DNA from: Haliscomenobacter hydrossis DSM 1100
GTDB taxonomy: Bacteria > Bacteroidota > Bacteroidia > Chitinophagales > Saprospiraceae
Length of the DNA: 64,000 nt
NCBI RefSeq assembly: GCF_000212735.1
Contig: NC_015510.1
Span: 4,713,001-4,777,000 of the forward strand
Direction: 5' to 3'
Shown here: piece by piece, positions 285 to 62,689 of the stretch
How positions within the stretch are numbered: the stretch's first letter is position 1
How the letters are laid out: the number at the start of each line of letters is the position of its first letter
Translations under genes and position numbers: made by a program
The notes under the pieces: model-generated
The model's input: the letters and a program-made list of their open reading frames with translations, nothing else
Told to the model about the DNA's origin: nothing
The model's database searches: none

Positions 285-1114
285 GCCACGAACCCATTAC
301 TGACTTGTCCAAACTTTGTATTCATACCATCACCACCAAGCCCTGGGCCATTGAAGAAGCGGCCAAAAATTTTGCGGCAGCAGGCGTAAAGGGCATCACC
401 GTGTGGCGCGATACACTGGCGGGTAGAGACATCAAAAAAACGGGCGACCTGCTCAGAGCACATGATTTGTCGATTGTGTCGCTGTGTCGGGGTGGTTTTT
501 TTCCCAGTATTGACAAAACCAAACGACAGGCCGCCATCGACGACAACCGCAAAGCCATCGAAGAGGCTCATCAGTTGGGGACACAATTGATTGTCCTCGT
601 CTGCGGGGCCGACCCTGCACAATCGCTGGAAGATTCCCGCCAACAGATTCAGGACGGGATTGAAGCGGTTCTGCCCGAAGCGTCGGCGGCGGGCGTACGG
701 CTGGCCATTGAGCCCCTGCATCCGATGTATGCCGACACCCGCTCGGCCATCAATACCCTCGCACAAGCCAATGACATGACCGAGGCGATCAACTCGCCCT
801 GGGTGGGTGTAGCCGTGGATGTGTACCATCTTTGGTGGGATCCGAATTTGGAGCAGGAGATCAAACGCTGCGGCAACAACGAGGCCTTGTTCGCCTTTCA
901 CATCTGTGATTGGAAATCCCCTACCGTGGACATGCTCAATGACCGCGGACTGATGGGCGAAGGCTGTATTCCCCTCAAAAAAATCAGGTCCTGGGTAGAA
1001 GCAACCGGATTTGACGGCTTCCGCGAAGTGGAGATTTTTTCCACGGAATACTGGCAACAAGATCAATCCCAATTTTTGCAAAAAATAATCACTGGATACA
1101 AAAATCATGCTTAG
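281..1114 (+). CDS. Sugar phosphate isomerase/epimerase, AP endonuclease 2-like TIM barrel
   Basis: This 277-residue cytoplasmic protein has no signal peptide and shows the xylose isomerase-like TIM-barrel pattern. Putative metal ligands are E144 (LAIEPLHP), D180 and H183 (VAVDVYHLWWD), H207 (FHICDW) and a Glu near 252 (REVEIF). Family members isomerise or epimerise sugars and keto-sugars, often next to Gfo/Idh/MocA dehydrogenases, as here. The start overlaps the GH88 stop by 4 bases, so this is the second gene of an operon. It probably processes the sugar released by the upstream hydrolase (inference). The substrate cannot be read from sequence. Its stop codon abuts a heptad palindromic repeat. 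Confidence 0.85.
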   Translation: MSHEPITDLSKLCIHTITTKPWAIEEAAKNFAAAGVKGITVWRDTLAGRDIKKTGDLLRAHDLSIVSLCRGGFFPSIDKTKRQAAIDDNRKAIEEAHQLGTQLIVLVCGADPAQSLEDSRQQIQDGIEAVLPEASAAGVRLAIEPLHPMYADTRSAINTLAQANDMTEAINSPWVGVAVDVYHLWWDPNLEQEIKRCGNNEALFAFHICDWKSPTVDMLNDRGLMGEGCIPLKKIRSWVEATGFDGFREVEIFSTEYWQQDQSQFLQKIITGYKNHA

Positions 1115-1195
1115 CGGTCAGCTATGAGCTGTCAGCAATCAGCCCCACGCAAAGTGTGCTGAAAGCTGAAAGCTCATAGCTGACTGCTGACCGCT
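1113..1195. repeat. Palindromic repeat with AGCNNTC heptad arms (copy 1)
   Basis: The left arm is four consecutive heptads, AGCGGTC, AGCTATG, AGCTGTC and AGCAATC. The right arm is the same type of array in inverted orientation, ending GACTGCTGACCGCT. The array begins within the stop codon of the isomerase-like gene. Related copies lie at 2348-2461, 2814-2879 and 62614-62689. Confidence 0.85.
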
Positions 1196-1209
1196 CAAAG
1201 CTTAACAAC

Positions 1210-2355
1210 ATGAAGCAACACACCGTCGGTATCATCATGAATGGCGTTACCGGGCGCATGGGCACCAACCAACATTTGCTGCGCTCCATTGCCGAAATCA
1301 TCAAACAAGGAGGCGTTAAAGTGGGCGCTGGGGAAACCATCATGCCCGACCCGATTCTGATTGGCAGGGATGTAAACAAATTAAAAAGGCTTTGTGACCT
1401 AACGGGCATTACCAAGATGAGTACCGATTTAGACGAAGCCTTGGCAAACCCCTACTTCAGCATCTATTTTGATGCCCAAACGACGGGCCGACGGGCCGAT
1501 GCCGTCAAAGCAGCCATCAAAGCAGGGAAACACATTTATTGCGAAAAACCGATTGCCGTCAGCACGGAATCGGCGATGGAGTTGTACGATTTGGCCACCC
1601 AGGCTGGGCTCAAAAACGGGGTGGTGCAGGATAAATTATGGCTTCCGGGCATTGTGAAAATAAAACGCCTGATTGAGCAAGGTTTTTTTGGCAAAATCCT
1701 CTCGGTTCGTGGCGAGTTTGGGTACTGGGTATTTGAGGGCGATAACATCGCCGCACAACGCCCTTCCTGGAACTACCGCAAAGAAGATGATGGAGGCATT
1801 ATTGTGGACATGTTGTGCCATTGGCGGTATGTTTTAGACGAGGTATTCGGCGAAGTAAAATCCGTTTCTTGCCTGGGTGCTACCCATATTCCTACCCGGG
1901 TAGATGAAAATGGAAACCAATACGAGTGTACGGCGGATGACTCCGCTTATGCCACTTTTGAACTGAAAAACGGGGTCATTGCACATTTCAATTCCTCCTG
2001 GACGGTGCGGGTAAGGCGTGATGATTTGCTCACCCTGCAAGTGGACGGCACCAAAGGCTCGGCTGTGGCTGGCCTGCGGGAATGTTACATCCAGCATTAT
2101 GGCAATACACCCAAACCAGTTTGGAACCCCGATATCGCCCAGCCCATTGATTTTTTTGGCGGCTGGTCAAAAGTACCGGAGCAGGAAGTACACGACAATG
2201 CCTTTAAAGTGCAATGGGAGTTGTTTTTGAAACATGTGGTGAAAGATGAGCCTTTCCCCTGGAATTTGAAGGCGGGTGCGAAAGGTGTGCAGTTGGCGGA
2301 GAAGGGACTGGAGAGTTGGGCAAAAAGAGCTTGGGTCGATGTGCCGGAGCTATGA
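1210..2355 (+). CDS. Gfo/Idh/MocA family oxidoreductase
   Basis: The 381-residue protein has an N-terminal Rossmann segment with a glycine-rich loop (GIIMNGVTGRMG, about 7-18). The family's EKP motif is at 112-114 and supplies the catalytic Lys. A C-terminal beta-sheet substrate domain follows, including the DMLCHWRYVLDEVFG helix. These enzymes are NAD(P)-dependent sugar or cyclitol dehydrogenases of the cytoplasm. It sits between an isomerase-like gene and an SDR, which fits oxidation or epimerisation of a sugar acid from the GH88 step (inference). The substrate is unknown. The last codons and the stop lie inside an AGCNNTC repeat array, so the C-terminus (..VPEL) may have been shaped by the repeat. 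Confidence 0.9.
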   Translation: MKQHTVGIIMNGVTGRMGTNQHLLRSIAEIIKQGGVKVGAGETIMPDPILIGRDVNKLKRLCDLTGITKMSTDLDEALANPYFSIYFDAQTTGRRADAVKAAIKAGKHIYCEKPIAVSTESAMELYDLATQAGLKNGVVQDKLWLPGIVKIKRLIEQGFFGKILSVRGEFGYWVFEGDNIAAQRPSWNYRKEDDGGIIVDMLCHWRYVLDEVFGEVKSVSCLGATHIPTRVDENGNQYECTADDSAYATFELKNGVIAHFNSSWTVRVRRDDLLTLQVDGTKGSAVAGLRECYIQHYGNTPKPVWNPDIAQPIDFFGGWSKVPEQEVHDNAFKVQWELFLKHVVKDEPFPWNLKAGAKGVQLAEKGLESWAKRAWVDVPEL

Positions 2356-2461
2356 GCAATCAGCTATGAGCTATGAGCAATCAGCTGTCAGCAATCAGCT
2401 GTCAGCAGAGTTGGGCTGATAGCTCAAAGCTGACAGCTGATAGCTCAAAGCTGATTGCTAT
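2348..2461. repeat. Palindromic repeat with AGCNNTC heptad arms (copy 2)
   Basis: Eight in-register heptads run from 2348: AGCTATG, AGCAATC, AGCTATG twice, AGCAATC, AGCTGTC, AGCAATC, AGCTGTC. The inverted array GCTGATAGCTCAAAGCTGAC... follows at about 2424-2459. The first heptad contains the stop codon of the upstream oxidoreductase gene. It forms the 3' border of the four-helix-bundle gene. Confidence 0.85.
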
Positions 2462-2792
2462 ACGCAAAAATCATTTTCCGCACTTGTACAATTTCTTCAT
2501 GAAGCTCTGTAAAAGTGGATTCAGAGATGTATTGTAGATCTCTTGAAAGAATTAATTGGTATTCCAATTCAGAAGAAGAACCAGTAGCAATGACAAAAAA
2601 CTGCTTTAATTGTGGGTTTGAGTTTCTGCCACATCCTTCAGCAATGTTGGTGGGTATGGATGAGGAGGAACGCCTCATTTGTGAAGTTAATCCAAAAAGT
2701 TCGTCTTTTGGGTATTGTTTGGTGATTTGGTAAATTCTTAAAGTAAGCGCATGACCTCTTTTCCAAACTTCAAGTTTTGTAAAGTCTCTCAT
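2445..2792 (-). CDS. Four-helix bundle protein, S23 ribosomal / intervening-sequence (IVP) family
   Basis: The 115-residue protein starts MRDFTKLEVWKRG and contains SSSIPTNIAEGCGR, which are hallmarks of the S23/IVP four-helix-bundle family (also called bAvd-like). The length is typical. Members occur in 23S rRNA intervening sequences and in many Bacteroidota genomes. Their function is unclear, with nucleic-acid binding suggested for relatives such as Avd. The gene is antisense to the surrounding operon, and its C-terminal codons overlap the heptad repeat at 2348-2461. Another copy of the repeat lies just upstream (2814-2879). Gene plus flanking repeats look like an inserted unit, which is inference. 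No reverse transcriptase or rRNA is nearby. Confidence 0.9.
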   Translation of the reverse strand: MRDFTKLEVWKRGHALTLRIYQITKQYPKDELFGLTSQMRRSSSSIPTNIAEGCGRNSNPQLKQFFVIATGSSSELEYQLILSRDLQYISESTFTELHEEIVQVRKMIFAYSNQL

Positions 2793-2813
2793 GTATTTTA
2801 CAGGTTTAAAACA

Positions 2814-2879
2814 TTCAGCAATCAGCTGTCAGCTATTAACTCAAATTTGCTGAAAGCTGATGGCTGAAAGCTGACAGCC
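2814..2879. repeat. Palindromic repeat with AGCNNTC heptad arms (copy 3)
   Basis: The left arm has AGCAATC, AGCTGTC, AGCTATT. The right arm, read in reverse complement, has GGCTGTC, AGCTTTC, AGCCATC, AGCTTTC, AGC. It lies just upstream of the four-helix-bundle gene on the opposite side from copy 2, and just before the SDR start. Confidence 0.8.
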
Positions 2880-2893
2880 AAAAATAATCAAAA

Positions 2894-3664
2894 ATGACAA
2901 AGGTTGCTTTAGTAACGGGAGGAAGCAGAGGCATTGGGCTAGGCATCGTAAAACAATTGGCACAACAAGGTTTTAACATCGCCATCAACGGGGTAAGGCC
3001 AGCAGAAGGTGTTGCTGATGTTTTGGCCAGCATCAAAGCCCTGGGCGTCGAAGTCATTTACTGCCAGGGCAACGTTGCCTTAAGTGCCGACAGGGCGAAG
3101 ATCCTGCAAGCGGTAAAAGACCACTTTGGGCAATTGAACATCCTGGTCAACAACGCCGGGATTGCCCCACGCGAAAGACGGGACGTGCTCAATACCAGCG
3201 AAGTCAGTTTTGACGAAGTGCTGGATACCAACCTCAAAAGTTGTTATTTCCTCACCCAGGCTGCCGCCAACTGGATGATTGAACAAAAAGAAAGCAACGC
3301 TGATTTTTCAGGATCTATCATCAACATCTCGTCAATTTCTGCTACGGTTGCTTCCGTCAATCGGGGCGAATATTGTGTGTCCAAGGCCGGGATCAGTATG
3401 GTGACGCAGCTTTTTGCCGCTCGTTTGGGCGAATACTTCATTCCGGTGTACGAAGTTCGTCCGGGTGTCATTGCCACGGACATGACGGCGGGCGTAAAAG
3501 AAAAATACGATAACCTGATTGCCCAAGGGCTTTGTGTACAACCGCGTTGGGGTACCCCGGAAGACGTTGGCAAAGCGGTCGGTGCACTGGCAATGGGCAG
3601 TTTTCCATACTCTACAGGTCAGGTCTTTATGGTCGATGGCGGGCTTACCATGCCGCGTTTATAA
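2894..3664 (+). CDS. Short-chain dehydrogenase/reductase (FabG-like)
   Basis: The 256-residue classical SDR has cofactor motif TGGSRGIG (8-15), NNAG (86-89), and catalytic S147, Y160 and K164 in NISS and YCVSKAG. The C-terminus has the usual GQVFMVDGG. It should catalyse NAD(P)-dependent oxidoreduction of a hydroxyl/keto group in the cytoplasm. Automatic pipelines would call it 3-ketoacyl-ACP reductase. The neighbouring isomerase, Gfo/Idh enzyme and carrier point instead to a sugar acid such as a keto-deoxy-uronate. That reading is from context only. Confidence 0.88.
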   Translation: MTKVALVTGGSRGIGLGIVKQLAQQGFNIAINGVRPAEGVADVLASIKALGVEVIYCQGNVALSADRAKILQAVKDHFGQLNILVNNAGIAPRERRDVLNTSEVSFDEVLDTNLKSCYFLTQAAANWMIEQKESNADFSGSIINISSISATVASVNRGEYCVSKAGISMVTQLFAARLGEYFIPVYEVRPGVIATDMTAGVKEKYDNLIAQGLCVQPRWGTPEDVGKAVGALAMGSFPYSTGQVFMVDGGLTMPRL

Positions 3665-3667
3665 TAG

Positions 3668-3788
3668 TTAGGTTGAGGAGGTTGAGAAAGTTGAGAAGGT
3701 TTAGGCTTCCGCAGCGGTTTTGACGATGTTTTCATCTAAGTCGCTGCGGAAGCCTAAACCTTCTCAACTTCCCTAAACCTTCTCAACA
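3668..3788. repeat. Intergenic palindrome with perfect 26-bp arms
   Basis: Perfect inverted arms lie at 3691-3716 and 3742-3767, separated by 25 nt. The inner arm is GGCTTCCGCAGCG. The outer left side is a tandem GTTGAGNAG array (GTTGAGGAG, GTTGAGAAA, GTTGAGAAG). The inner core resembles that of the palindrome at 28949-29025. It lies between the SDR and MFS genes, which run in the same direction. Confidence 0.85.
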
Positions 3789-3820
3789 ATACATTTTAAT
3801 ACATCTTCAACCACATCAAG

Positions 3821-5038
3821 ATGCAAGCAGACAAATTAAGTGCAGGACAGTACAAAGTCACCGCCACCGGTTTTTTAAGTTTGTTTTCCATTGTAGGCAT
3901 CATGTTCTATGGGCTTCCCTTTTTCTTTGATTTTTGGGTAAAAGAATTTGGTTGGTCCAGGGCCATGGTCACCTCTGGAAACCTGGCGGGGAAAGTGATT
4001 GTCGGCCCACTTTTTGGCTTTGCAGCCGGGTGGTTCATCGACCGTTTTGGCCCACGGCGACTGATGTTGTCCGGCATCCTGATGGTTGGACTAGCCGTGA
4101 TGGGTCTGGGGATCATGCAGTCCGTATGGCAATTTTATACGTTTTACTTTCTGATCGCCCTGGGCTACATGTGCGGTGGTCCACTGCCCAATCAGGTGCT
4201 GATTTCCAGGTGGTTTAGTACCGCCCGGGGGAAAGCGATGGGCATTGCTTATTTGGGTATTGGCGTTGGCGGGATGTTGGTGCCCCACATTGCGCGCTGG
4301 TTGAATCAGGAGGCGGGCTGGCGTACGGCCCTGACCGTGCTGGGTGGGATCATCATTGTGGTGGCCTTTCCGATGGCCTGGTTTGTCAAGGAGAGTCCCG
4401 ATGAACAGGCTGAAGAACATAAAACGCCGGAGCCCAAAGTATCTTTATCCAGTGTCGTGAGAAGCAAATCCTTCTATCTATTGGCCATTGGCAGCATGTG
4501 CTCGATTGGCGCAGTGGCGGGGGTCAGCCAGAACCTCAAACTGTTTTTGAGTCTCGATTTGCAATACAGCCAAGGACAGGCGGCCAGCATCATGTCACTG
4601 GTTTTGGGTTCCAGCATCATTGGGCGTTTATTAATGGGTTGGTTGGCGGATCGTTTTGCCAAAAAGCACGTCATGTTGCTCATTTACGCGATTGTCAGTT
4701 TGTCCATTTTGTTGCTGTACAGCAGCACAACGCCTACCGCCATTTATGTGTTTGCTGTGCTGTTTGGCATTGGGCTGGGTGGCGATTACATGATCATTCC
4801 CTTGATGGCCGCAGAGTTGTTTGGGGTAAAAGTAATGGGCCGGGTGATGGGACTTATTTTAACCGTTGATGGCCTGGCGGAGGCCTTTGGACCCATTATG
4901 GCGGGTGCCTTGCGCGACAGAACGGGCAGTTATGCGATGGGCTTTACGGCCTTGATTGTGTTGTCGGTGGTCGGTTGTATTGCGGTGGGGTTGTTGCCGG
5001 GTAAGCAAAAGGATTTACCCACAAAAACTGGGTATTGA
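3821..5038 (+). CDS. MFS transporter, oxalate/formate antiporter-like (monocarboxylate type)
   Basis: The 405-residue protein has about 12 hydrophobic segments with a central loop near residues 190-210 (KESPDEQAEEHKTPEPK). Conserved loop patterns include DRFGPRRL after TM2 and a related ADRFAKKH in the second half. The DFWVKEFGWSRAMVT segment near the N-terminus is typical of the OFA/monocarboxylate MFS group. It is the last gene of the catabolic run and probably imports the sugar acid or oligosaccharide product handled by the upstream enzymes (inference). The start ATG at 3821 follows a palindrome. No promoter is obvious. Confidence 0.85.
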   Translation: MQADKLSAGQYKVTATGFLSLFSIVGIMFYGLPFFFDFWVKEFGWSRAMVTSGNLAGKVIVGPLFGFAAGWFIDRFGPRRLMLSGILMVGLAVMGLGIMQSVWQFYTFYFLIALGYMCGGPLPNQVLISRWFSTARGKAMGIAYLGIGVGGMLVPHIARWLNQEAGWRTALTVLGGIIIVVAFPMAWFVKESPDEQAEEHKTPEPKVSLSSVVRSKSFYLLAIGSMCSIGAVAGVSQNLKLFLSLDLQYSQGQAASIMSLVLGSSIIGRLLMGWLADRFAKKHVMLLIYAIVSLSILLLYSSTTPTAIYVFAVLFGIGLGGDYMIIPLMAAELFGVKVMGRVMGLILTVDGLAEAFGPIMAGALRDRTGSYAMGFTALIVLSVVGCIAVGLLPGKQKDLPTKTGY

Positions 5039-5163
5039 GGAAACCTTTATGATAGGAGGCATAATCATTGAAACTATTTGAAGGTGAGGGGGGTTAAGTT
5101 AATGGTGTTTTAGTTTTATGCAGCAGACCAGGTGCTGATTAGCCGTCTGTTTATTCCTATTCC

Positions 5164-8100
5164 ATGCGACCAAATGAAGTAACAAAAAAAAACAGACCGC
5201 TTTTAACCAAAATTGGACGTGGAATCATTGTCTTTTTCTTCTCCATCGTATTGTTGCTTGCCTTATTACTCTTGCTCCTGCAAACCAAACCCGTCCAAAA
5301 TTTTGCCAGAAAAAAAATTGTCGCTTATCTCGAACAAAAGCTGGGTACTACCTTGGCCATCAAGCGACTGGATATCTCCTTTCCCAAAATGCTGGTACTG
5401 GAAGGGGTGTACGTTGAAGACCAAACCAAAGACACCCTGCTGGCTGGTCATCAATTGAAAGTCGACATCGACCTGTTTCAATTGCTCAACAATCGGGTAC
5501 AAATCAATGAAATCGTATTAAAGGGCATTACGCTGAAACTAAAGCGACCAGCTTCAGATCAGCCCTTCAATTACCAGTTTATCGTAGACGCTTTTGCGAC
5601 CGAGGAAGAAAATCCCAGTCCGGATACCTCCGCCCTCATTATGGCCGTGGATAAATTAATCCTCGACGATACCCGCCTGGTATTTTTGGATGTACTTACG
5701 GGCAATGATGTGGATGTTTACCTCGGGCATGCCCAACTGCGGATCGCCCGCATTGATGCGAACAAACTGGAATACGATGTCCCCCAAATTGATATTCGTG
5801 GTTTAAGGGGCAGGGTCAATCAAAACACGCCTTTGGAAATTACCGCTGTCAATACCAATCCCAACCCTGAGCTGGTCAACGAAAAACCGGAATACTTCAA
5901 ATTTACGAATCAACAAACGCGCCTACGGGATGTAGACTTCGCCTACAGCAGTGAAGCTGCGGCCATCAACACCAACTTTACCTTCAAAGACCTGCAAGTT
6001 TCCCCGAAAACCATCGACCTGGAAAAAAACCTGATTGCCCTCCACAAACTGCAACTAAGTGATTTTACAGGCCGAATTGACCTGAATACCCAAGCTGAAG
6101 CGGAGCTCATCAAACTGACCACCCAAACCGATCAGGAACTACAAACGGAGTACCTGCCCTGGAAATTCACCGCTGACCTTGTTCGCCTCCACAACAGCAA
6201 CCTCATTTACAACGACAACACCCAAGTCCGCCAGAAAAGTGGCATGGATTACGCGCATTTAAACCTCCAGAACCTGACCTTGCACGGCGACGATTTTTTG
6301 TACAACCGGGATACCATCGCCCTAAGGATCAGGAAAGGGCAAATGTGGGAAGGCAGTGGATTTAGACTGGAGCAATTGCAAGCAGATTTTCAGTATACCA
6401 GCCGTGAAGTACGTTTGGAAAAGTTATGGATCAAAACCCCCGGTTCCACGATCCAGCGGAGGGCCATCCTCAGTTATCCTTCGGTGGCCGCAATTCAAAA
6501 AAATCCAGCACTGATGGGGCTCAATTTGGACATCGAGAATAGCCGCATCCAGGTCAAAGACCTCCTCACTTTTGTCCCTTTCCTGGCCAACCAACCTGCG
6601 TTCAAAAACCCCGCTGCCGTCTTTGAACTCAATACCAACATGTTTGGTAGCCTGGCCCGACTCAACATCCGGGAATTGCAGTTCAGCGGTTTTGAAAATA
6701 CCCAGGCCGACCTCTCCGGAACCATCCACAATGCGACCGACCCCGATCATTTTTCAGTCGACCTCAACATTCGCCAATTCAGTACCAGCCGCAATGACGC
6801 CTTGCTTTTTGTGCCGCCCAACAGCATTCCCGACAGCATTACGCTGCCAGAATCCATGTCGCTCTCCGGAACGGTAAAAGGCAGCGCAGCAAACCTGAAC
6901 GCAGATCTTGACCTCCGCACGCCCTTGGGTAATGCCCAGGTGAATGGAACCATCAGCAATGCTGCCCGCTCCCAAAAGGCGGCCTACAATGCCACCATCG
7001 CCGTACAGGCCTTGCAGGTAGGAACCATCCTGCAACAGCCGGAAACGCTGGGGGCACTCAGTGCAAAATTTGCGGTACAAGGAAAAGGTTATGAGGTAAA
7101 AACCGCAGAAGTGCAGGCCAAAGGCGTTGTCACCAGCGCCGTTTACAACAAATATACTTACCGCGATTTTCAACTGGATGCGACTTTGATCAAGCAACAG
7201 TTTGATGTGCGCGGGGGCATGAAAGACCCAAACCTGCATTTCACGGTGCAGGCCACCGGCGAATTGGGCGGAGCGTATCCCGCTTTTGCCGGAACCTTGA
7301 ACATTGACAGCATAAAAACTGGCCCGCTGCACCTGAGCACCGACCCAATCGTTTACCGGGGCGTCATCAAAGCGGATGTTCCGGCGCTGAATCTGGACAG
7401 TTTGAATGGGCAGATTTATTTGCTCAATTCTTTGCTGATCAGCAACAACCAACGCGTAAACATCGATTCCATTGAGTTGGTAGCCAGCTACCAAGACGGG
7501 CAGCAATCGCTCGATTTAAGCACCCATTTTGCCCAGGCCAGGCTCAGCGGCCAGTACAAGCTGACCCAGTTGGGCGATATTTTTACGCAGGCCATCCAGC
7601 CTTATTTTGCCATCGTCCCCAGCTCCACCCTTCCCGATACCTCCCTGGTTTATGACTTTAGTCTTCAGGCCACGGTCAGCGATCATGTGGCCATCCAGGC
7701 TTTTTTGCCCGATTTGCAGCGGATGGATGACATCGTGCTTGACGCCCACTTTTCCAGCGCCAGCGGATGGTTTGCAAATTTAACTTCACCCAATATTGCC
7801 TATGGAGCCAATCGAATTTCCGGATTAAATCTCCGTGCACAAACCCAGGGCGATCACATCCGCTTCACTACCAGCATCGCGGAAATCGGCAATGGAGAAA
7901 CTTTTGTGGTGCAAGGCACCCAAATGCGGGCCAGCATCGCCAACAATCAGATCGATTTTGGACTACGCATCGGCGACGACGCCCGGCGAGATAAATACCG
8001 GCTCTCCGGGCTTTTTGCCCAGGAAACGGAAGGACACTATTCGTTGTCGCTTCGATCGGATAGTTTATTGCTGAATTACGAGCCTTGGGCCATCGACGGC

Positions 8101-10254
8101 AACAATCAGATTCGTTTTGGCGATAATCTGGTCAATGCCCGCCATTTTGATTTGAGCCGAAAAAATCAACACCTGAGAATCAACAGCCGGGATAGTTCCA
8201 GCAATAGCCCTTTGGGCATCAGTTTTGAAAACTTCCACCTGTCCACACTTACCGGATTTTTGCAGGTAGATTCATTGTTTGCCGACGGCACCCTCAACGG
8301 AAACATCGTTTTGAATGACATCTATACGCAGTTAAACTTTACGACCGACCTGACCATCAACAACCTGGAGGTGGAAAGGGATACGATCGGCGACATCAAT
8401 GCCAAAATCAGTAACCCCAAACCCAATGTTTTTGCCACCGATATCAGCATCAAAGGCCGTGGCAACGATGTAGCGCTCACCGGAAACTATTACCTCAAGG
8501 CGGAAGATAAAAGCACGATGGACTTTAATCTGGCGGTCAAAAGTTTACAATGGAATACGCTCGAAGGCCTAAGTATGGGGGCCATCCGGAATGGGAAAGG
8601 ATTCCTGAGTGGCAATGTGAAAATTGGCAACAAACCCACTGCGCCCGACATTGCTGGCCGCCTAGGTTTCAACGAAACCAGCATGGTCATCAGCATGCTC
8701 AACAGCGAGTTTAAAATTGACAATGAACAAATTATCGCTGTAGAAAACCAGGGACTGCGTTTCAATTCATTCACCATCCGCGACTCATCTGAAAACAAGT
8801 TAACCATCAATGGGGTGGCCAAAACGACCAACTATTTGAATTACACCTTTGACCTGAGCCTGCTGGCCAATAATTTCAGGGCACTGAATACGAGTAAAAA
8901 GGACAATGACCTGTATTACGGCCAACTCTTTTTTGATACGAATGTAAAAATCACTGGCACCGAAACCGCACCAGTTGTAGAGGGTACCCTGCGCATCAAT
9001 GAAAGCACCCGCCTAACCGCCGTGATCCCACAAGAACAGCCGGGGGTGGTGGAACGCGACGGGATCGTGGTATTTGTAGACAAGGACGCCCCTCTGAATG
9101 ATGCTTTGTTTTTGAAACAAATGGATACCCTGAACAAAACCGACATCCAGGGAATGGAGGTTTCGGTCAATATCGAAATAGACAAAAAAGCGGTGCTGAA
9201 TTTGATCGTCGATGAGGGCAATGGAGATTTTCTCCGCCTCCAGGGCGAAGCGGTGTTGAATGGTGGCATCGACAAAAGTGGAAAAATAACCCTCACCGGG
9301 TCTTATGAATTGGAAGAGGGCGCTTACGAAATGTCCTTCAATGTGATCCGTCGCCGTTTCGATATTCAAAAAGGCAGCAAAATTACCTGGATCGGCGAGC
9401 CTACCAATGCCCTCGTAGACATTACCGCGGTGTATCTGGCCAATACGTCGGCAGTGGAGCTGATTCAGGATCAAATCACCGAGGCCCGAACCGACATGCG
9501 TTACCAGCAAAAACTTCCTTTTGCGGTGTACCTGAATATGGATGGCTCACTGATGCAACCGGTTCTCACGTTCGACATTGTTTTGCCGGAAGAAAGCACC
9601 ACGCGCATCGACAATGACATTGCCGGCCAGGTGGAAATGCGGCTGAATCAGCTAAAGGCCGAACCTTCGGAGTTGAACAAGCAGGTTTTTGCCTTGCTCT
9701 TGCTGAATCGATTCATCTCCGAAAATCCATTTGAAAGCAGCACCGGAGTCCTCAATGTGAGCACTTTGGCCCGCCAGAGTGTCAGCAAAATGTTGACCGA
9801 ACAGTTGAACAACCTCGCCAGTGGTTTGATTTCCGGCGTAGACCTCAATTTTGACATCGTTTCTTCGGAGGATTATACTTCGGGCAGCTTGCAAAATAAA
9901 ACCGACCTGAATGTGGGCCTTTCCAAACGTTTGTTGAACGATCGCCTGAACGTTTCCATCGGGACCAATTTTGAACTCGAAGGAGCTCGTCAAAGCAATG
10001 AAACGGGTGCGGGAGGCAGTAGTATATCACCCAATCTGAACATCGAATACCTCCTTTCCCAGGATGGAAAGTACCTCTTGAGGGCCTATCGCCGCAACGA
10101 ATATGAAGGCGTGATAGATGGTTATGTGGTAGAAACCGGGATTGGATTTGTGCTTTCAATGGATTACGACAAATTTAAAGAAATATTCGAGGCCAGAAAA
10201 ATGCGGAGAAAGGCGTCCAAAGTAGGAAAAAGAAAGGAAGAAGATGAAGAATAA
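5164..10254 (+). CDS. tamB: TamB-like translocation/assembly module protein (DUF490)
   Basis: This 1696-residue protein has one N-terminal membrane anchor (about 18-40) followed by a very long beta-rich region of AsmA/TamB type. The C-terminal TamB (DUF490) region starts around residue 1200. This is the architecture of inner-membrane-anchored bridge proteins that span the periplasm and, with an Omp85 partner, support outer-membrane protein assembly or lipid transport. The next gene, a TamA-type Omp85 lipoprotein, overlaps its end by 11 bases, matching the usual Bacteroidota tamB-tamL pairing. It ends in a highly charged tail (RKKASK..KEEDEE). No promoter is evident in the 125-base gap upstream. 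Confidence 0.9.
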   Translation: MRPNEVTKKNRPLLTKIGRGIIVFFFSIVLLLALLLLLLQTKPVQNFARKKIVAYLEQKLGTTLAIKRLDISFPKMLVLEGVYVEDQTKDTLLAGHQLKVDIDLFQLLNNRVQINEIVLKGITLKLKRPASDQPFNYQFIVDAFATEEENPSPDTSALIMAVDKLILDDTRLVFLDVLTGNDVDVYLGHAQLRIARIDANKLEYDVPQIDIRGLRGRVNQNTPLEITAVNTNPNPELVNEKPEYFKFTNQQTRLRDVDFAYSSEAAAINTNFTFKDLQVSPKTIDLEKNLIALHKLQLSDFTGRIDLNTQAEAELIKLTTQTDQELQTEYLPWKFTADLVRLHNSNLIYNDNTQVRQKSGMDYAHLNLQNLTLHGDDFLYNRDTIALRIRKGQMWEGSGFRLEQLQADFQYTSREVRLEKLWIKTPGSTIQRRAILSYPSVAAIQKNPALMGLNLDIENSRIQVKDLLTFVPFLANQPAFKNPAAVFELNTNMFGSLARLNIRELQFSGFENTQADLSGTIHNATDPDHFSVDLNIRQFSTSRNDALLFVPPNSIPDSITLPESMSLSGTVKGSAANLNADLDLRTPLGNAQVNGTISNAARSQKAAYNATIAVQALQVGTILQQPETLGALSAKFAVQGKGYEVKTAEVQAKGVVTSAVYNKYTYRDFQLDATLIKQQFDVRGGMKDPNLHFTVQATGELGGAYPAFAGTLNIDSIKTGPLHLSTDPIVYRGVIKADVPALNLDSLNGQIYLLNSLLISNNQRVNIDSIELVASYQDGQQSLDLSTHFAQARLSGQYKLTQLGDIFTQAIQPYFAIVPSSTLPDTSLVYDFSLQATVSDHVAIQAFLPDLQRMDDIVLDAHFSSASGWFANLTSPNIAYGANRISGLNLRAQTQGDHIRFTTSIAEIGNGETFVVQGTQMRASIANNQIDFGLRIGDDARRDKYRLSGLFAQETEGHYSLSLRSDSLLLNYEPWAIDGNNQIRFGDNLVNARHFDLSRKNQHLRINSRDSSSNSPLGISFENFHLSTLTGFLQVDSLFADGTLNGNIVLNDIYTQLNFTTDLTINNLEVERDTIGDINAKISNPKPNVFATDISIKGRGNDVALTGNYYLKAEDKSTMDFNLAVKSLQWNTLEGLSMGAIRNGKGFLSGNVKIGNKPTAPDIAGRLGFNETSMVISMLNSEFKIDNEQIIAVENQGLRFNSFTIRDSSENKLTINGVAKTTNYLNYTFDLSLLANNFRALNTSKKDNDLYYGQLFFDTNVKITGTETAPVVEGTLRINESTRLTAVIPQEQPGVVERDGIVVFVDKDAPLNDALFLKQMDTLNKTDIQGMEVSVNIEIDKKAVLNLIVDEGNGDFLRLQGEAVLNGGIDKSGKITLTGSYELEEGAYEMSFNVIRRRFDIQKGSKITWIGEPTNALVDITAVYLANTSAVELIQDQITEARTDMRYQQKLPFAVYLNMDGSLMQPVLTFDIVLPEESTTRIDNDIAGQVEMRLNQLKAEPSELNKQVFALLLLNRFISENPFESSTGVLNVSTLARQSVSKMLTEQLNNLASGLISGVDLNFDIVSSEDYTSGSLQNKTDLNVGLSKRLLNDRLNVSIGTNFELEGARQSNETGAGGSSISPNLNIEYLLSQDGKYLLRAYRRNEYEGVIDGYVVETGIGFVLSMDYDKFKEIFEARKMRRKASKVGKRKEEDEE

Positions 10255-12499: not shown

Positions 12500-12524
12500 C
12501 ACTCGCCTACGTGGAGCTTTTTTT

Positions 12525-12592
12525 ACCACAGATTCACACAGATTTACACAGATTATACTCATAATTTGTGTAAATCTGTGTGAATCCGTGGT
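12525..12592. repeat. Intergenic palindrome, 32-bp arms of ACACAGATTT-type units
   Basis: The arms at 12525-12556 and 12561-12592 match at 30 of 32 positions around a 4-nt loop. Each arm is a tandem of about 10-bp CACAGATT(T/C)A units. It lies between the convergent tamL and SIS genes, so it could act as a bidirectional terminator. A REP-like GCACTCGCCTACG segment lies at 12499, at the tamL stop codon. Confidence 0.85.
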
Positions 12593-12602
12593 GCACAAAA
12601 TC

Positions 12603-13166
12603 CTACGTTTTTTCGATAAAAGCATAACAAACCATGTGGCAGATCCCCATATGCGCATCTTCCACCCGGCCGTAGTGGGTCTCATCCACCGCGATGAGGA
12701 AATCGGCCAGTTCGGCCAATTGACAAGGCCGGGAACTCACCAGCGCAATCACAAACACCCCCTGTTCTTTGGCCCATTTGGCGGCTTTGACCAGGTTGGG
12801 TGAATTTCCACTCACACTCAAAGCCATAAACAGGTCGCCGGGCTGGGCAAAATTCATCAGTTGTCGCACGTAGATGTCTTCGTAGGCGTAGTCATTCCCT
12901 AAAGCCGTGATCCAGGAGAGGTGCTCATTGAGCGACATGCCTTTGAAGGGTTTGTCCATTTTATCCGAAGCCGCTTTGCTCAAATCGGTGATAAAATGGG
13001 AGGCATTGGTGGCGCTCCCGCCATTGCCACAGACGAACATCTGGCGGTTTTCCTGCCAGGCTTTTTCGTAAATGGCGATGAGTTCCGCGATTTTTGCCTG
13101 CGGCAAATTGGCAATCAGGCGCTGGTGTTTTTCAAGGTAGTCAGCAATAAATATGCTTGTATCCAT
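12603..13166 (-). CDS. SIS-domain phosphosugar isomerase (D-sedoheptulose-7-phosphate isomerase, GmhA-like)
   Basis: The protein has 187 residues from the ATG at 13166; an upstream in-frame TTG at 13190 is less likely. It shows the SIS-domain pattern: CGNGGSATNASH phosphosugar loop, ALSVSGNSPN loop and a C-terminal EDAHMGICHMVCY helix like that of GmhA. GmhA converts sedoheptulose-7-phosphate to heptose-7-phosphate for LPS core heptose. Other SIS proteins of this size act on different phosphosugars, so the role is probable rather than certain. No other heptose genes are nearby. It is co-directional with the ROK kinase gene, separated by a large palindrome. Confidence 0.82.
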   Translation of the reverse strand: MDTSIFIADYLEKHQRLIANLPQAKIAELIAIYEKAWQENRQMFVCGNGGSATNASHFITDLSKAASDKMDKPFKGMSLNEHLSWITALGNDYAYEDIYVRQLMNFAQPGDLFMALSVSGNSPNLVKAAKWAKEQGVFVIALVSSRPCQLAELADFLIAVDETHYGRVEDAHMGICHMVCYAFIEKT

Positions 13167-13284
13167 ATCTTTTTTAATTGAAGGTAACAATCTAATAGAC
13201 TTCGATTCTACCGCCTAGCGCTATTTATTCATAATATTTACTGTTACCCCGGAGCCTTCGGCTCGTTCACATGAGTCACAAATG

Positions 13285-13380: not shown

Positions 13381-13419
13381 CCATTATTGTCGCTTTTATC
13401 AGCCCACATGGGTGTTTAA

Positions 13420-14639: not shown

Positions 14640-14682
14640 AAATGTGAGTTATTAATAAAAATAATTCAAAACGCTCGTTATC

Positions 14683-28929: not shown

Positions 28930-29055
28930 ACATGAGTACATGAGTTACGAGTTTTGAAGTAAGCTACCGCAGCAACTTTGACCAAAGCGGTGTCTAAGTT
29001 GCTGCGGTAGCCTACTTCAAAACTCATGTACTCATGTATTCGTCACTCGTAACTC
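28930..29055. repeat. Intergenic palindrome, 30-bp near-perfect core arms
   Basis: The core arms at 28949-28978 and 28996-29025 match at 29 of 30 positions. The inner core GCTACCGCAGC...GCTGCGGTAGC resembles that of 3691-3767, and both loops contain TCTAAGT. Outer flanks are tandem ACATGAGT units and their inverted counterparts. It occupies most of the 320-bp gap 28822-29141, where no gene is seen. Confidence 0.85.
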
Positions 29056-31329: not shown

Positions 31330-31437
31330 TCTAAGGTGTCTCTTAGGTGTCTGTGGGTACTTAGGTGGTGAAATAATACTTTGCTATACAGGTCTTTTTT
31401 TCTTTTTTCACTACCTTAGAAACCATAGACACCTTAA
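31330..31437. repeat. Imperfect intergenic palindrome with AGGTGTCT units
   Basis: The left side has CTAAGGTGTCT, CTTAGGTGTCTG and CTTAGGTGGTGAAA. The right side has TTTCACTACCTTAGAAACCATAGACACCTT in inverted orientation. It lies between the GH31 and GH36-like genes. Confidence 0.65.
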
Positions 31438-33669: not shown

Positions 33670-33784
33670 GCACTCGCCTACGGCGAATGCATTTTGACAT
33701 ATTTCCCCCGCAGATCACGCAGATTTACGCAGATTTTTTTCGAAGGAAGACCTTATCTGCCTAAATCTGCGTGATCTGCGGGGG
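33670..33784. repeat. Composite repeat: REP-like hairpin plus 30-bp palindrome of ACGCAGATTT units
   Basis: A 21-nt hairpin GCACTCGCC-TAC-GGCGAATGC lies at 33670-33690. It is followed 14 nt later by arms at 33705-33734 and 33755-33784 (29 of 30 matching) built from ACGCAGATT(T) units. The same hairpin-plus-palindrome layout recurs at 39781-39893 and, in degenerate form, at 12499-12592. Confidence 0.88.
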
Positions 33785-33840
33785 ATAAATAAAAAATCTA
33801 GCCCCGACTTTGTCGGAGTTAGATTTTTACGATTTTCAGC

Positions 33841-39780: not shown

Positions 39781-39893
39781 GCACTCGCCTGCGGCGAATG
39801 CTTTAAACTTAATTAGCCCGCAGATCACGCAGATTCACGCAGATTTTTTTCAGAAAAAACATTATCTGCGTAAATCTGCGTGATCTGCGGGCT
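39781..39893. repeat. Composite repeat: REP-like hairpin plus 30-bp palindrome of ACGCAGATT units
   Basis: The hairpin GCACTCGCC-TGC-GGCGAATGC is at 39781-39801. The arms at 39815-39844 and 39864-39893 match at 29 of 30 positions. It lies between the convergent TonB receptor and LytTR genes. It is a sequence sibling of 33670-33784. Confidence 0.88.
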
Positions 39894-39929
39894 AAAAAAA
39901 TACAATCCACGGCAGGTGGAGCTAAACTT

Positions 39930-46303: not shown

Positions 46304-46373
46304 GTAGCACAAAGGATACAAAGACGGATGTCGCCTGGTGTCCTTTGTGCTTTCCTTCGTGTTCTTTGTGCTA
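46304..46373. repeat. Intergenic palindrome of GCACAAAGGA-type units
   Basis: TAGCACAAAGGATACAAAG on the left is mirrored by CCTTCGTGTTCTTTGTGCTA on the right, with TGTCCTTTGTGC inside. It lies between the convergent DUF2911 and carboxylesterase genes. The units resemble those of 53114-53232. Confidence 0.75.
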
Positions 46374-50120: not shown

Positions 50121-50130
50121 ATACTCTTTA

Positions 50131-50203
50131 AGATTCGACGGAACCCGAACTGGCGACTCTCCCGATGAAATCGGGATATTCTAACCAACTGAACTACCGA
50201 ACC
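50131..50203 (-). tRNA. tRNA-like sequence with Glu anticodon TTC, copy 1 (possible pseudogene)
   Basis: The first 27 nt are identical to the neighbouring tRNA-Asp. The anticodon arm TCCCG-ATTTCAT-CGGGA carries TTC. The T stem has mismatches (GCCAG against TCCGT), T-loop position 58 is G rather than A, and the discriminator would be T. The acceptor pairs only if the 3' half is one base shorter. It is either a diverged tRNA-Glu or a decayed copy. Confidence 0.5.
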
Positions 50204-50234
50204 AAAAATTCGTTTCGATCTACTTTTCTTATCT

Positions 50235-50256
50235 GGGCATCCACAAAGGGATGCCC
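50235..50256. other. Hairpin between the two tRNA cassettes
   Basis: GGGCATCC-ACAAAG-GGATGCCC forms a perfect 8-bp stem with a 6-nt loop. No T-run follows on the minus strand, so it may be a processing signal rather than a terminator. Confidence 0.45.
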
Positions 50257-50266
50257 CTAATGTTGG

Positions 50267-50340
50267 CGGTCCGGACGGGACTCGAACCCGCGACCCCCTG
50301 CGTGACAGGCAGGTATTCTAACCAACTGAACTACCGAACC
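50267..50340 (-). tRNA. tRNA-Asp (anticodon GTC), copy 2
   Basis: This is the same 74-nt sequence as copy 1, 220 bp away, part of a 157-bp direct duplication that also contains the Glu-anticodon tRNA-like sequence. All arms pair normally. Confidence 0.95.
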
Positions 50341-50350
50341 ATACTCTTTA

Positions 50351-50423
50351 AGATTCGACGAAACTCGAACTGGCGACTCTCCCGATGAAATCGGGATATT
50401 CTAACCAACTGAACTACCGAACC
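50351..50423 (-). tRNA. tRNA-like sequence with Glu anticodon TTC, copy 2 (possible pseudogene)
   Basis: It differs from copy 1 at two T-arm positions: TTCGAGT loop instead of TTCGGGT, and TTCGT instead of TCCGT. This version has a normal A58 and a better T stem. The acceptor register and T discriminator remain abnormal. It would be transcribed first of the four. Confidence 0.5.
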
Positions 50424-53113: not shown

Positions 53114-53232
53114 AGCGACACATTTTAACACAAGGGACACAAAGGCTGCACAAAGGACACAAAGACTTGTCAACGTCTAACTTTGTGTCCCTTGTGCAGC
53201 CTTGGTGTCCTTTGTGTTAAAACACATGTCGC
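53114..53232. repeat. Intergenic palindrome with 38-bp core arms of CACAAAGGA-type units
   Basis: The core arms at 53127-53164 and 53181-53218 match at 35 of 38 positions around a 16-nt loop. Outer flanks GCGACACATTTTA and TAAAACACATGTCGC continue the symmetry. Its right flank contains an in-frame ATG (53226) of the P450 gene, which argues for the later start at 53262. Confidence 0.88.
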
Positions 53233-61299: not shown

Positions 61300-61430
61300 G
61301 GGGCATTTTTTGGTGAAAAATGATGGGTAGTAATGGTTTAACCATTTTTAACATTAAATGCGCTTGTGCTAAAAATGAAAAAGGGACAATGCATTGCACT
61401 ATCCCTTTATATGTTGATTTTTGGTAAATC

Positions 61431-62594
61431 TTACCCCTTCAAATACCCCGCTCTCCAAACCCAAATGCCCCCAGCCGCAATTACTACGCCCAGCGCCACC
61501 GGCAAACTAAACCCCTTGGCAATGAACCCAATCACGGCCGGGCCGCCTAAAAAGCCAACCATGGCAAAAGTGTTCATGGTAGCCAAACCCGCACCGGGAG
61601 CCATACCGGGGACTTTAGCTGCAGCACTGTACAAGATGGGCGCACCCAGGGATACCCCGGCGCCTACCATCGCAAAACCAATCAGCACGGTAGCCGGATA
61701 AGGCAACAAAACCGCCAGCAACAAGCCGCTGGCCGCAACACAGCCACCTACCCGCAACACTTTTCCGCCGCTGTGGTGCTTCAGGATGGCATCACCCGCA
61801 AAACGGGTCAAAGCCATAAAGAGGGCATAAGCGGCAAACCCCCAACCCCACAGGGCGGCAGGCGCTTTGACAATTTCGCGCATGTATACCGCCGACCAGT
61901 CGGCCATCGTTCCCTCGGTCAGGTTGGTACACAAACTGATGGAAATCAGGCCCCATAATGCTGCATTGGGCAAACGAAACTTTGGCCGTGGTCCCGCGCT
62001 TTTGCTCACCATGACCTCGCTGGGTACTTTTTGAAGCGACTGATAAATGAATAGCGTAGACAAAAGCAGAATCGATCCCATGAACATGACGTGCGTGACC
62101 GGATGTACGCCCATGCCCATCGAGGTGGCTCCAAGCGCCGAACCAAACATGGCCCCACTGGACCATAAGGCATGGCAGGTCGACATGATGCGGATGCCGT
62201 CATATTTTTCGAGGCTGGTTGCCGCTGTATTCATCGAAACATTGGTGGTGGAAAAAGTTGTTCCCATCACAAATAAGGCCATGGCTACCAAACCCACCTG
62301 GGGCATCAAAAAAGGAATGACAAAAAACAGTGCACCCAAAGTACGGGCAATTAAGGTAGCCCGAACAGTGCCCAAACGATGCAAAATTCCAACCGAAAGT
62401 GGATTCATCAGGGTAACTCCAGCAGGTAGCGCCAACAGCAACAAACCCAATTGGGCCTCATCCAGTTGAAACTTCTGCTTGATGTATGGAATCATAGAAG
62501 ACCAGGTACCAAACAACAATCCTTGCATGGCGAAAACCAATCCGATGGCCCGGCTGGTACTGTGGTTGAAAAAGAGACGTAAGTGCGCAGTCAT
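61431..62594 (-). CDS. MFS transporter, FucP/YbjJ-like
   Basis: The 387-residue protein has about 12 membrane segments and little loop sequence. Typical features are FAMQGLLFGTWSSMIPYIKQKFQLDEAQLGLLLLALPAGVTLMNPLSVGILHRLG at the N-terminus, CHALWSSGAMFGSALGA in the TM5 region, and LTEGTMADWSAVYMREIVKAPAALWGWGFAAYALFMALTRFAGD at the start of the second half. This resembles the FucP/YbjJ branch, which handles sugars or unknown metabolites. It is a single gene with a heptad repeat upstream. The substrate cannot be assigned. Confidence 0.85.
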   Translation of the reverse strand: MTAHLRLFFNHSTSRAIGLVFAMQGLLFGTWSSMIPYIKQKFQLDEAQLGLLLLALPAGVTLMNPLSVGILHRLGTVRATLIARTLGALFFVIPFLMPQVGLVAMALFVMGTTFSTTNVSMNTAATSLEKYDGIRIMSTCHALWSSGAMFGSALGATSMGMGVHPVTHVMFMGSILLLSTLFIYQSLQKVPSEVMVSKSAGPRPKFRLPNAALWGLISISLCTNLTEGTMADWSAVYMREIVKAPAALWGWGFAAYALFMALTRFAGDAILKHHSGGKVLRVGGCVAASGLLLAVLLPYPATVLIGFAMVGAGVSLGAPILYSAAAKVPGMAPGAGLATMNTFAMVGFLGGPAVIGFIAKGFSLPVALGVVIAAGGIWVWRAGYLKG

Positions 62595-62613
62595 AAGGAG
62601 CGAATAGTTAATT

Positions 62614-62689
62614 GCTATCAGCAGTCAGCTATCAGCCATCAGCTAAATTATGGCTGGAGGCTGACTGCTGATAGCCGAAAGCTGAAAGC
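62614..62689. repeat. Palindromic repeat with AGCNNTC heptad arms (copy 4)
   Basis: The perfect 16-bp core arms are GCTATCAGCAGTCAGC (62614-62629) and its complement (62660-62675). More heptads follow inside (AGCTATC, AGCCATC) and outside (GCTTTC, AGCTTTC). The family is the same as at 1113-1195 and 2348-2879, about 60 kb away. Confidence 0.85.

What the first reader, a model, noticed from the sequence alone, without database searches (positions are those of the whole stretch)
1113..62689. A shared architecture of intergenic palindromes whose arms are tandem arrays of 7-10-bp units
At least a dozen gaps hold long inverted repeats: 1113-1195, 2348-2461, 2814-2879, 3691-3767, 12525-12592, 13285-13380, 14381-14639, 28949-29025, 31330-31437, 33705-33784, 39815-39893, 46304-46373, 53127-53218 and 62614-62689. 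The unit differs between elements (AGCNNTC, GTTGAGNAG, ACACAGATTT, GCGGATTAA, ACGCAGATTT, CACAAAGGA), yet each arm is a tandem array of its own unit and the arms are inverted. Unrelated units with the same geometry suggest a common generating mechanism (replication slippage on hairpins or an active element) rather than simple terminators. Several lie between co-directional genes. I do not know whether this class has been named.
Basis: partly seen in the sequence, partly recalled or inferred. Interest (0 to 1): 0.7.

Follow-up and report, generated by a model that had tools for sequence, protein, structure and literature searches.

The report
Mobile hairpins with two small proteins
The repeat-built hairpins between this bacterium's genes look like gene-less copies of small mobile elements whose full-length versions carry one of two little-studied protein genes, and which occur with different repeat units in many bacterial phyla; how they move is not known.

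Summary
An 864-kb sample of its genome has 152 hairpin-forming inverted repeats against 1 in a shuffle; 46 of 152 have periodic arms (7.6 expected), mostly outside long ORFs. Several are dispersed families, present or absent at the same site in related species. Full-length versions carry a gene between inverted arrays of one unit: a four-helix-bundle protein (TIGR02436/PF05635, the protein of 23S rRNA intervening sequences) or a GxxExxY protein (TIGR04256/PF13366, PD-(D/E)XK nuclease superfamily). One such gene lies in the window (2445-2792, minus). All 8 four-helix genes of this genome, 77 of 80 named genome loci and 15 of 15 plasmid loci examined show such flanks. Gene and arrays move together: three similar copies at unrelated sites in one genome, and a precise insertion between ~98% identical cyanobacterial plasmids. 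The mobility enzyme is not identified, and target duplications are not consistent. Ten searches of an open-access library found no description of this link.

The parts
1113..1195 (.). gene-less palindrome, 7-bp unit AGCNNTC
   Evidence: shares 17 9-mers with flanks of the four-helix gene in L024; present in G004, absent in G002 at this site
2348..2461 (.). palindromic array (AGCNNTC) on one side of the gene-bearing element
   Evidence: same array at the same site in G004, absent in G001, G002 and G003
2445..2792 (-). four-helix-bundle protein gene (TIGR02436, PF05635 23S_rRNA_IVP), 115 aa
   Evidence: TIGR02436 E 7.1e-37; PF05635 E 6.9e-40, weak bAvd match E 1.3e-4
2814..2879 (.). second palindromic array (AGCNNTC) closing the gene-bearing element
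   Evidence: shares 11 9-mers with L024; below the thresholds
3670..3793 (.). gene-less element, GTTGAGNAG units around core CTTCCGCAGCG
   Evidence: in the listed (cut-off) part at least 28 places in G001, 32 in G003, 5 in G004, 0 in G002; site occupied in G001 and G003, empty in G004 and G002
12525..12592 (.). gene-less palindrome, ACACAGATTT unit
   Evidence: site empty in G001, G003 and G004; unit flanks the GxxExxY gene in L012
13284..13381 (.). gene-less palindrome, GCGGATTAA unit, 41 of 41 arm bases paired; TGTCGCTT end motif just to its right
   Evidence: site empty in G001, different sequence in G004; 34 9-mers shared with GxxExxY flank L253
14359..14661 (.). composite element, ACTCCGCGG units and long core
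   Evidence: site empty in G001 and G004; 55 9-mers shared with GxxExxY flank L011; contains two terminator-like sites
28949..29025 (.). palindrome with core like that of the GTTGAG family, GAGTACAT units outside
   Evidence: many related copies in G003 and G001; no gene-flank match above random (60 of 300 random segments do as well)
31330..31437 (.). degenerate palindrome, CTTAGGTGTC unit
   Evidence: many copies in the genus; unit flanks GxxExxY genes L246 and L249 in G003 and G004
33704..33785 (.). gene-less palindrome, ACGCAGATTT unit
   Evidence: no gene-flank match above random in the genus (146 of 300)
39813..39895 (.). gene-less palindrome, ACGCAGATTT unit, sister of 33704-33785
   Evidence: no gene-flank match above random in the genus (138 of 300)
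46304..46373 (.). weak gene-less palindrome, CACAAAGGA unit
   Evidence: 17 9-mers shared with GxxExxY flank L243; below the thresholds
53123..53222 (.). gene-less palindrome, CACAAAGGA unit, with AAGCGACA-type end motif
   Evidence: 32 9-mers shared with GxxExxY flank L243
62613..62690 (.). gene-less palindrome, AGCNNTC unit
   Evidence: 15 and 12 9-mers shared with four-helix flanks L024 and L003

Best explanation
The palindromes are members, mostly gene-less, of families of small mobile DNA elements. A full-length element is: tandem array of a 7-10-bp unit, one small gene, the same array inverted. The gene encodes either a four-helix-bundle protein of the 23S rRNA intervening-sequence (S23/Avd-like) family or a GxxExxY protein of the PD-(D/E)XK nuclease superfamily. 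Each family has its own unit. Gene-less copies keep the two arrays, so that they can form a hairpin, and spread beside the full-length copies, as MITEs do beside their parent. Shown: the architecture, its linkage to these two families, dispersal, occupied and empty sites, and gene plus arrays at new sites as one piece. Inferred (about 0.5): the encoded protein binds or cuts its own array or hairpin and is the mobility factor. Inferred: arrays lengthen and shorten by slippage, and the arms are kept matched by hairpin-templated copying.
For: Tandem arrays (TRF, period 6-14) within 450 bp: four-helix genes 8 of 8 in this genome, 16 of 17 in the genus, 22 of 30 in the phylum; GxxExxY 5 of 6 own, 12 of 28 phylum; control toxin family PF05973 2 of 20; RAYT (Y1_Tnp) 1 of 7 (Fisher p against the control: four-helix own plus genus 2e-9, phylum 9.5e-6, GxxExxY phylum 0.014). 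80 named loci, 13 phylum-level labels positive: 77 of 80 near the gene, 22 of 76 at 350-570 bp. Plasmid loci 15 of 15 near, 6 of 15 distal. In G002 three elements (L025, L028, L032) with TTAATGG arrays are alike only from array end to array end, with unrelated flanks; two GxxExxY copies (L251, L254) share about 1.3 kb and differ outside. Precise insertion: L270 against L279 and L280, plasmids about 98% identical, 456 bp versus 28 bp between the starts of the same two markers. The same site holds a gene-less palindrome in L282 and a truncated copy in L281. A gene-less element sits inside a four-helix gene in L292. Six window sites could be compared in relatives, all six variable. GxxExxY residues E22, D62, E72, K74 and Q86 are invariant in 13 of 13. 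Of 101 periodic elements in the own sample 79 share unit k-mers with one of 14 home genes.
Against: No element was seen to move, and no known transposase is encoded. Target duplication is not consistent: 5 bp (GTAAT) at one site, none clear at another, at most 1 bp in the nested case. Home genes explain 79 of 101 own periodic elements but genes of the other genomes already explain 55; in G004 13 and 13 of 19; in G003 5 against 13 of 18 (a draft of 510 contigs). G002 has 9 usable genes but only 10 inverted repeats in 400 kb, 2 of them periodic, so gene and hairpins do not always go together. Of the phylum loci, 8 of 30 four-helix and 16 of 28 GxxExxY genes have no TRF array. With the looser measure the control family scores 8 of 20 and RAYT 3 of 7. 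The match of protein and unit similarity (r 0.66, 0 of 5000 permutations) may come from linkage on one element rather than recognition, and without pairs over 70% identity it falls to r 0.25 (genus) and 0.11 (genus plus phylum). Three of 14 window spans have no gene-flank match above random. An unbiased search for long-span periodic inverted repeats did not return the window's own four-helix element.
Confidence: 0.77

Rival explanations
1. The elements are mobile, but moved in trans by an unrelated enzyme such as a RAYT or IS200/IS605-type HUH transposase; the four-helix and GxxExxY proteins are regulators, immunity or passenger genes.
For: Seven Y1_Tnp genes are in the genome. Insertion without regular target duplication, and GATAA to the right of three gene-less copies (L286, L287, L292), recall single-strand insertion next to a short target. 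Gene-less elements outnumber gene-bearing ones (101 periodic elements in a tenth of the genome, against 14 genes in all of it).
Against: Only 1 of 7 RAYT loci has a tandem array near it; 3 of 7 have other, short perfect hairpins of the REP kind within 260 bp. The linkage of arrays to two protein families across phyla would be unexplained.
Confidence: 0.25
2. Local origin: each palindrome grew in place by slippage and template switching on a chance hairpin, with no mobile element.
For: Arms agree better within an element (94%) than between elements of one unit family (83%), 21 of 81 perfectly, though detection required 80%. Array length varies between near-identical plasmids (L270 and L271).
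Against: Dispersed families with common non-repetitive cores, AAGCGACA ends shared by three unit families, empty sites and copies of gene plus arrays at unrelated sites.
Confidence: 0.05
3. Transcription terminators or RNA-processing hairpins kept for regulation.
For: Hairpin gaps are commonest between convergent ORFs (30 of 69) and rarest between divergent ones (12 of 76), co-directional 71 of 245 (ORFs of 150 codons or more, chosen mechanically, so some pairs are mislabelled, e.g. 1109-1209).
Against: Arms of about 30-45 nt without a regular T tract; in window 1-20000 the terminator scan (45 sites, 28.2 expected) touches only the 14.4-14.6 kb element (the rest was not scanned); Rfam matches in the window are three tRNAs, none on an element; presence differs between related species at the same gene pair. 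The bias also fits selection against insertion into promoters.
Confidence: 0.05
4. The two genes are cargo that entered pre-existing repeat arrays by homologous recombination; the arrays are the primary and unrelated phenomenon.
For: Gene-less arrays are far more numerous, and relatives can hold arrays without a matching gene (G003).
Against: Gene and arrays co-occur under 13 phylum-level labels and are found at new sites as one piece; two families in the same position are hard to explain as cargo.
Confidence: 0.1

Closest known systems
23S rRNA intervening sequences (IVS) with S23 open reading frame, e.g. in Coxiella (PMC4990558, abstract and passages read)
   Same: Stem-loop made by complementary ends around a gene of the same four-helix family; suspected to be a mobile or selfish element
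   Different: Here between protein genes, not in helices of 23S rRNA; arms are tandem arrays; many unit families, gene-less copies, evidence of movement; a second protein family
Short tandemly repeated repetitive (STRR) sequences of cyanobacteria (recalled; the term was seen only in the listing)
   Same: Heptanucleotide tandem arrays between genes; the cyanobacterial plasmid loci here carry such arrays
   Different: STRR are known to me as plain repeats; the link to four-helix genes and inverted pairing was not found in the searches
TAACTGA repeats of Beggiatoaceae, cyanobacteria and Bacteroidetes (PMC4679880, passages read)
   Same: Intergenic heptamer arrays; the author raised that a repeat-binding protein might be the mobile element
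   Different: 169 direct sets and one indirect in the genome described; no protein family named in the passages seen
REP sequences with RAYT transposases, and MITEs (recalled)
   Same: Many short palindromes without genes beside a few gene-bearing copies
   Different: No HUH or DDE transposase; arms are tandem arrays; unit differs between families of one genome

Membership tests
23S rRNA IVS | gene of the 23S_rRNA_IVP/S23 family | tested here: met
   PF05635 E 6.9e-40 for window 2445-2792; only for gene-bearing elements of the four-helix kind, 1 in the window
23S rRNA IVS | complementary ends forming a long stem | tested here: met
23S rRNA IVS | location inside 23S rRNA | tested here: not met
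   window elements lie between protein genes; Rfam finds only tRNAs in the window
23S rRNA IVS | excision from RNA by RNase III | not testable with these tools
   needs RNA work
REP/RAYT | cognate Y1_Tnp gene flanked by the same repeats | tested here: not met
   tandem array near 1 of 7 Y1_Tnp loci; 3 of 7 have other short perfect hairpins
MITE | gene-less copies share ends with a gene-bearing parent | tested here: met
   L286 and L287 share both array ends with L270; window families with L003, L005, L011, L012 and others, not for 3 of 14 spans
MITE | constant target site duplication | tested here: inconclusive
   GTAAT 5 bp at one site, none clear at another, at most 1 bp in the nested case
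MITE | parent encodes a known transposase | tested here: not met
   parents encode TIGR02436 or TIGR04256 proteins; no transposase seen between the arrays of the loci read
STRR | tandem heptanucleotides between genes in cyanobacteria | tested here: met
   read by eye in the cyanobacterial plasmid loci L264-L275, weak in L265; in Haliscomenobacter units are 7-10 bp, so only the kind of repeat is shared
Intrinsic terminator | short G+C stem followed by T run | tested here: not met
   only 14.4-14.6 kb touches terminator-like sites in 1-20000; rest of the window not scanned

The most novel reading that the evidence does not exclude
A hitherto unnamed class of bacterial mobile element with no recognised transposase: a four-helix-bundle protein or a PD-(D/E)XK nuclease recognises the tandem, inverted array of its own element and mobilises both itself and gene-less hairpin copies. 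It would unite the STRR repeats of cyanobacteria, the intergenic tandem palindromes of Bacteroidota and other phyla, and the 23S rRNA intervening sequences as one kind, and explain what two very common uncharacterised protein families do.
Probability: 0.45. Interest if true: 0.92.

Novelty: new variant of a known kind. Interest (0 to 1): 0.8.

Why it matters
TIGR02436 occurs in 114 of 148 sampled genomes of this phylum and TIGR04256 in 74 of 148, yet neither family has an established function (recalled). If they are the genes of mobile hairpin elements, much of the repeated intergenic DNA in many bacteria gets an origin, and the old question whether 23S rRNA intervening sequences are mobile becomes testable with intergenic relatives that have empty sites. 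An element class without a known transposase would also be a new mechanism to look for.

Tried and rejected
REP/RAYT by descent: rejected as the parent. Terminators and known RNA families. An empty site for the TTAATGG element L025 in relatives: its two flanking genes match at separate places there, so it gave nothing. Target duplications in the genus: the gaps are too diverged to read. The first periodicity score (fixed-lag identity) missed arrays of mixed 9 and 10 bp and was replaced by a k-mer score. Structure prediction of the GxxExxY family was dropped.

Papers, ten searches: none; two papers with GxxExxY, neither about repeats (one passage each read: PMC8934634; PMC12085832); 85 papers, 20 listed, none on the subject by title; nine papers, one followed (PMC4853749, passages); two papers, the TAACTGA ones; one paper (PMC5524665, passages read: it lists four helix bundle genes in two phage-like regions, nothing on repeats); seven papers, listing only; 29 papers, 12 listed, one followed (PMC4990558); none; 127 papers, 10 listed, none on the subject by title. 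bioRxiv and most subscription journals are not held, so absence from print is not proven.

Rows dropped: seven loci at contig edges (one GxxExxY, six control); one genus four-helix, three genus GxxExxY, one phylum GxxExxY and six control. In one search the GxxExxY motif pattern was met by 42 of 45; of the other three, two carry D and ExK with other spacing by eye and one (L162) was cut with wrong coordinates. In one search, 11 of the 15 genus GxxExxY matches were used. One search used 24 of 25 genus four-helix loci, 35 of 55 genus plus phylum, and 15 of 34 GxxExxY, those with enough tandem k-mers. Phylum loci of the two families are the best-scoring, at most one per genome; the control had up to three per genome. 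In one search some random segments overlap elements. Only 15 of the 33 plasmid records were fetched.


Full report
Check of the observation. The window comes from Haliscomenobacter hydrossis: the genome has 8,771,651 bases in 4 contigs, the size given for the type strain (PMC3156403, abstract). Of the 14 listed spans 11 are inverted repeats with arms of 20 nt or more and one more; 2814-2879 and 46304-46373 are weaker and gapped. Arrays of period 7-14 are in or beside 11. In 864 kb of the genome there are 152 inverted repeats (arms 20 nt or more, 80% or more, span to 160) against 1 in one dinucleotide shuffle; 46 of 152 have periodic arms against 7.6 expected; 83% lie mostly outside ORFs of 100 codons or more, which cover 85% of the sequence. 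Gaps with such hairpins: 30 of 69 convergent, 71 of 245 co-directional, 12 of 76 divergent, by mechanically chosen ORFs.

What sits with them. The ORF 2445-2792 (minus), between the palindromes 2348-2461 and 2814-2879, is a four-helix-bundle protein: TIGR02436 E 7.1e-37, PF05635 '23S rRNA-intervening sequence protein' E 6.9e-40 with a weak bAvd match; its relatives 2gsc (E 4.6e-18) and 2rld (E 0.0025) have solved structures with five chains each. The genome has 8 such genes and 6 GxxExxY (TIGR04256) genes. Reading their flanks showed different tandem units: AGCTATC, GAGTTGAAG, GTTGAGAAG, GGGTTCGG, GTTGATGAGG, AAAAGTG, ACGAATG, GTGTGGGT for the four-helix genes; GCGGAGTT, CACAGATT, CGACGCG, ACACAAAGG, a CACAAAGGCGC-like repeat and AAACGGAT for GxxExxY (by eye). 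These are largely the units of the gene-less palindromes. Three of the 7 RAYT loci have other, short perfect hairpins nearby.

Controls. With Tandem Repeats Finder, arrays within 450 bp are present at 8 of 8 own, 16 of 17 genus and 22 of 30 phylum four-helix loci, 5 of 6 own and 12 of 28 phylum GxxExxY loci, 2 of 20 loci of the control toxin family PF05973 and 1 of 7 RAYT loci (Fisher values). A looser measure (shared inverted 8-mers or tandem 6-mers in 220 bp) gives 8 of 8, 16 of 16 and 23 of 30 for four-helix, 6 of 6 own, 11 of 12 genus and 24 of 28 phylum for GxxExxY, but also 8 of 20 for the control and 3 of 7 for RAYT; at 350-570 bp distance it gives 3, 6 and 11 for four-helix and 1, 8 and 6 for GxxExxY, 6 for the control. 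Among 80 named four-helix loci (best 80 of 569) from Bacteroidota, Chloroflexota, Acidobacteriota, Planctomycetota and others, 77 of 80 are positive near the gene against 22 of 76 further out; inverted sharing 60 of 80 against 10 of 80 shuffled, 15 of 76 further out and 12.6% of mismatched gene pairs (labels set from record titles). On plasmids, 15 of 15 loci fetched (of 33 records hit) from cyanobacteria, Gemmatirosa, Bernardetia and Sphingomonas are positive, 6 of 15 further out; some lie between cas10 and cmr3, between cas6 and cas4, or between fabD and fabG.

Movement. In G002 three four-helix elements with TTAATGG arrays (88-98% protein identity) are alike only over the element and sit between unrelated sequences. 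Two GxxExxY copies in G002 share about 1.3 kb and differ outside. The Trichormus plasmid locus L270 and the plasmids L279 and L280 are about 98% identical; between the starts of the same two markers L270 has 456 bp where they have 28, and GTAAT stands on both sides of the insert. Brasilonema holds a gene-less palindrome at that site and Nostoc C052 a truncated copy. A second plasmid site is filled in L273 and L285, without element in L284, and holds a gene-less palindrome in L283. At a third site L269 is filled and L289, L290 and L291 are empty, without a clear duplication. In L292 a gene-less element lies inside a four-helix gene, with at most 1 bp duplicated. In the genus the six window sites that could be compared all vary: 3670-3793 is present in G001 and G003 and absent in G004 and G002; 12525-12592 is absent in G001, G003 and G004; 14359-14661 absent in G001 and G004; 13284-13381 absent in G001, with other sequence in G004; the four-helix element is present in G004 and absent in G001, G002 and G003, where G001 and G003 have a hairpin of another family; 1113-1195 is present in G004 and absent in G002. 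The remaining spans could not be compared, because gene order differs or because 47-64 kb was not searched. Copy number differs by lineage: for the 3670 family at least 28, 32, 5 and 0 places in the listed part for G001, G003, G004 and G002.

Anatomy. Arms agree at 94% within and 83% between elements of one unit family, 21 of 81 perfectly (detection itself needed 80%). Cores and units are modular: a CTNCCGCAGC-like core occurs with GTTGAG and with TACGAGTTT units (by eye). A motif AAGCGACA marks an end of 6 of 8 CACAAAGG, 5 of 5 GCGGAT, 1 of 2 AACGGAT and 1 of 14 GGGTTCG elements and none of the other families; 14 of its 42 occurrences in 864 kb lie within 60 bp of an inverted repeat, 1.6 expected. 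Read from that end, many show a degenerate copy at the other; single cases with a CACAGAG and, as AGGCGACA, a TTAGGTG unit are in G004. Shared ends on different arms fit a common mobility system for these GxxExxY-type families. GxxExxY proteins keep E22, D62, E72, K74 and Q86 in 13 of 13 aligned sequences, the pattern of an active PD-(D/E)XK nuclease (the pattern is recalled). Four-helix proteins keep 18 invariant positions over 9 sequences from Bacteroidota and cyanobacteria.

Linkage of unit and gene. Protein identity and unit similarity go together (four-helix, genus: r 0.66, genus plus phylum r 0.55; GxxExxY r 0.53; each 0 of 5000 permutations), but this may be linkage on one element; without pairs over 70% identity r is 0.25, 0.11 and 0.31. 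In the own sample 79 of 101 periodic elements share unit k-mers with one of 14 home genes, 55 with one of 28 genes of the other genomes; in G004 13 and 13 of 19; in G003 5 and 13 of 18; in G002 1 and 1 of 2. So the home rule holds in the one complete genome and is not seen in the drafts. Of the 14 window spans 11 match a gene flank better than most random segments (2 to 14 of 300 reach the same value), 3 do not (60, 146 and 138 of 300).

Comparison. The IVS of 23S rRNA share gene family and stem, and have been suspected of being mobile (PMC4990558, abstract and passages). STRR (recalled) and the TAACTGA repeats share the heptamer arrays; the TAACTGA paper raised a mobile repeat-binding protein (PMC4679880, passages); the Thiomargarita genome paper reports palindromic repeats of undetermined role and TAACTGA occurrences (PMC4853749, passages). 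Ten searches brought up no paper linking these repeats to either protein family. I rate it a new variant of known kinds, with a fair chance of being a new class.

Mechanism. I commit to self-encoded mobility with gene-less followers, at about one half for the role of the protein. The chemistry is open. The mixed target duplications and the GATAA to the right of three gene-less copies (n = 3) are leads, no more.

Noticed in passing
L286, L287, L292: Three related gene-less elements have GATAA immediately to the right; in L292 this is part of the interrupted gene. It may be a target preference.
   Followed up: partly
L264 and L268: Four-helix genes sit inside CRISPR operons of cyanobacterial plasmids (cas6 / cas4, cas10 / cmr3).
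   Followed up: no
L278 against L288: A GxxExxY gene between inverted arrays separates fabD and fabG in a Sphingomonas plasmid; S. paeninsulae has no insert there.
   Followed up: partly
L017-L023: Seven RAYT-type genes, three with short perfect REP-like hairpins within 260 bp; L023 has a stop codon inside.
   Followed up: partly
   Followed up: no
window 50047-50423, minus: Three tRNA genes in a row, two with the same score and one weak.
   Followed up: no
G002: A species of the same genus with 25 inverted repeats per Mb against 150-176 in the others: the families expanded or were lost by lineage.
   Followed up: no
PMC5524665 (passages) and PMC12085832 (one passage): Four helix bundle genes are listed between guanylate kinase and nicotinate-nucleotide adenylyltransferase genes in Flavobacterium columnare, and a GxxExxY gene in an algal virus; flanks were not looked at.
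   Followed up: no
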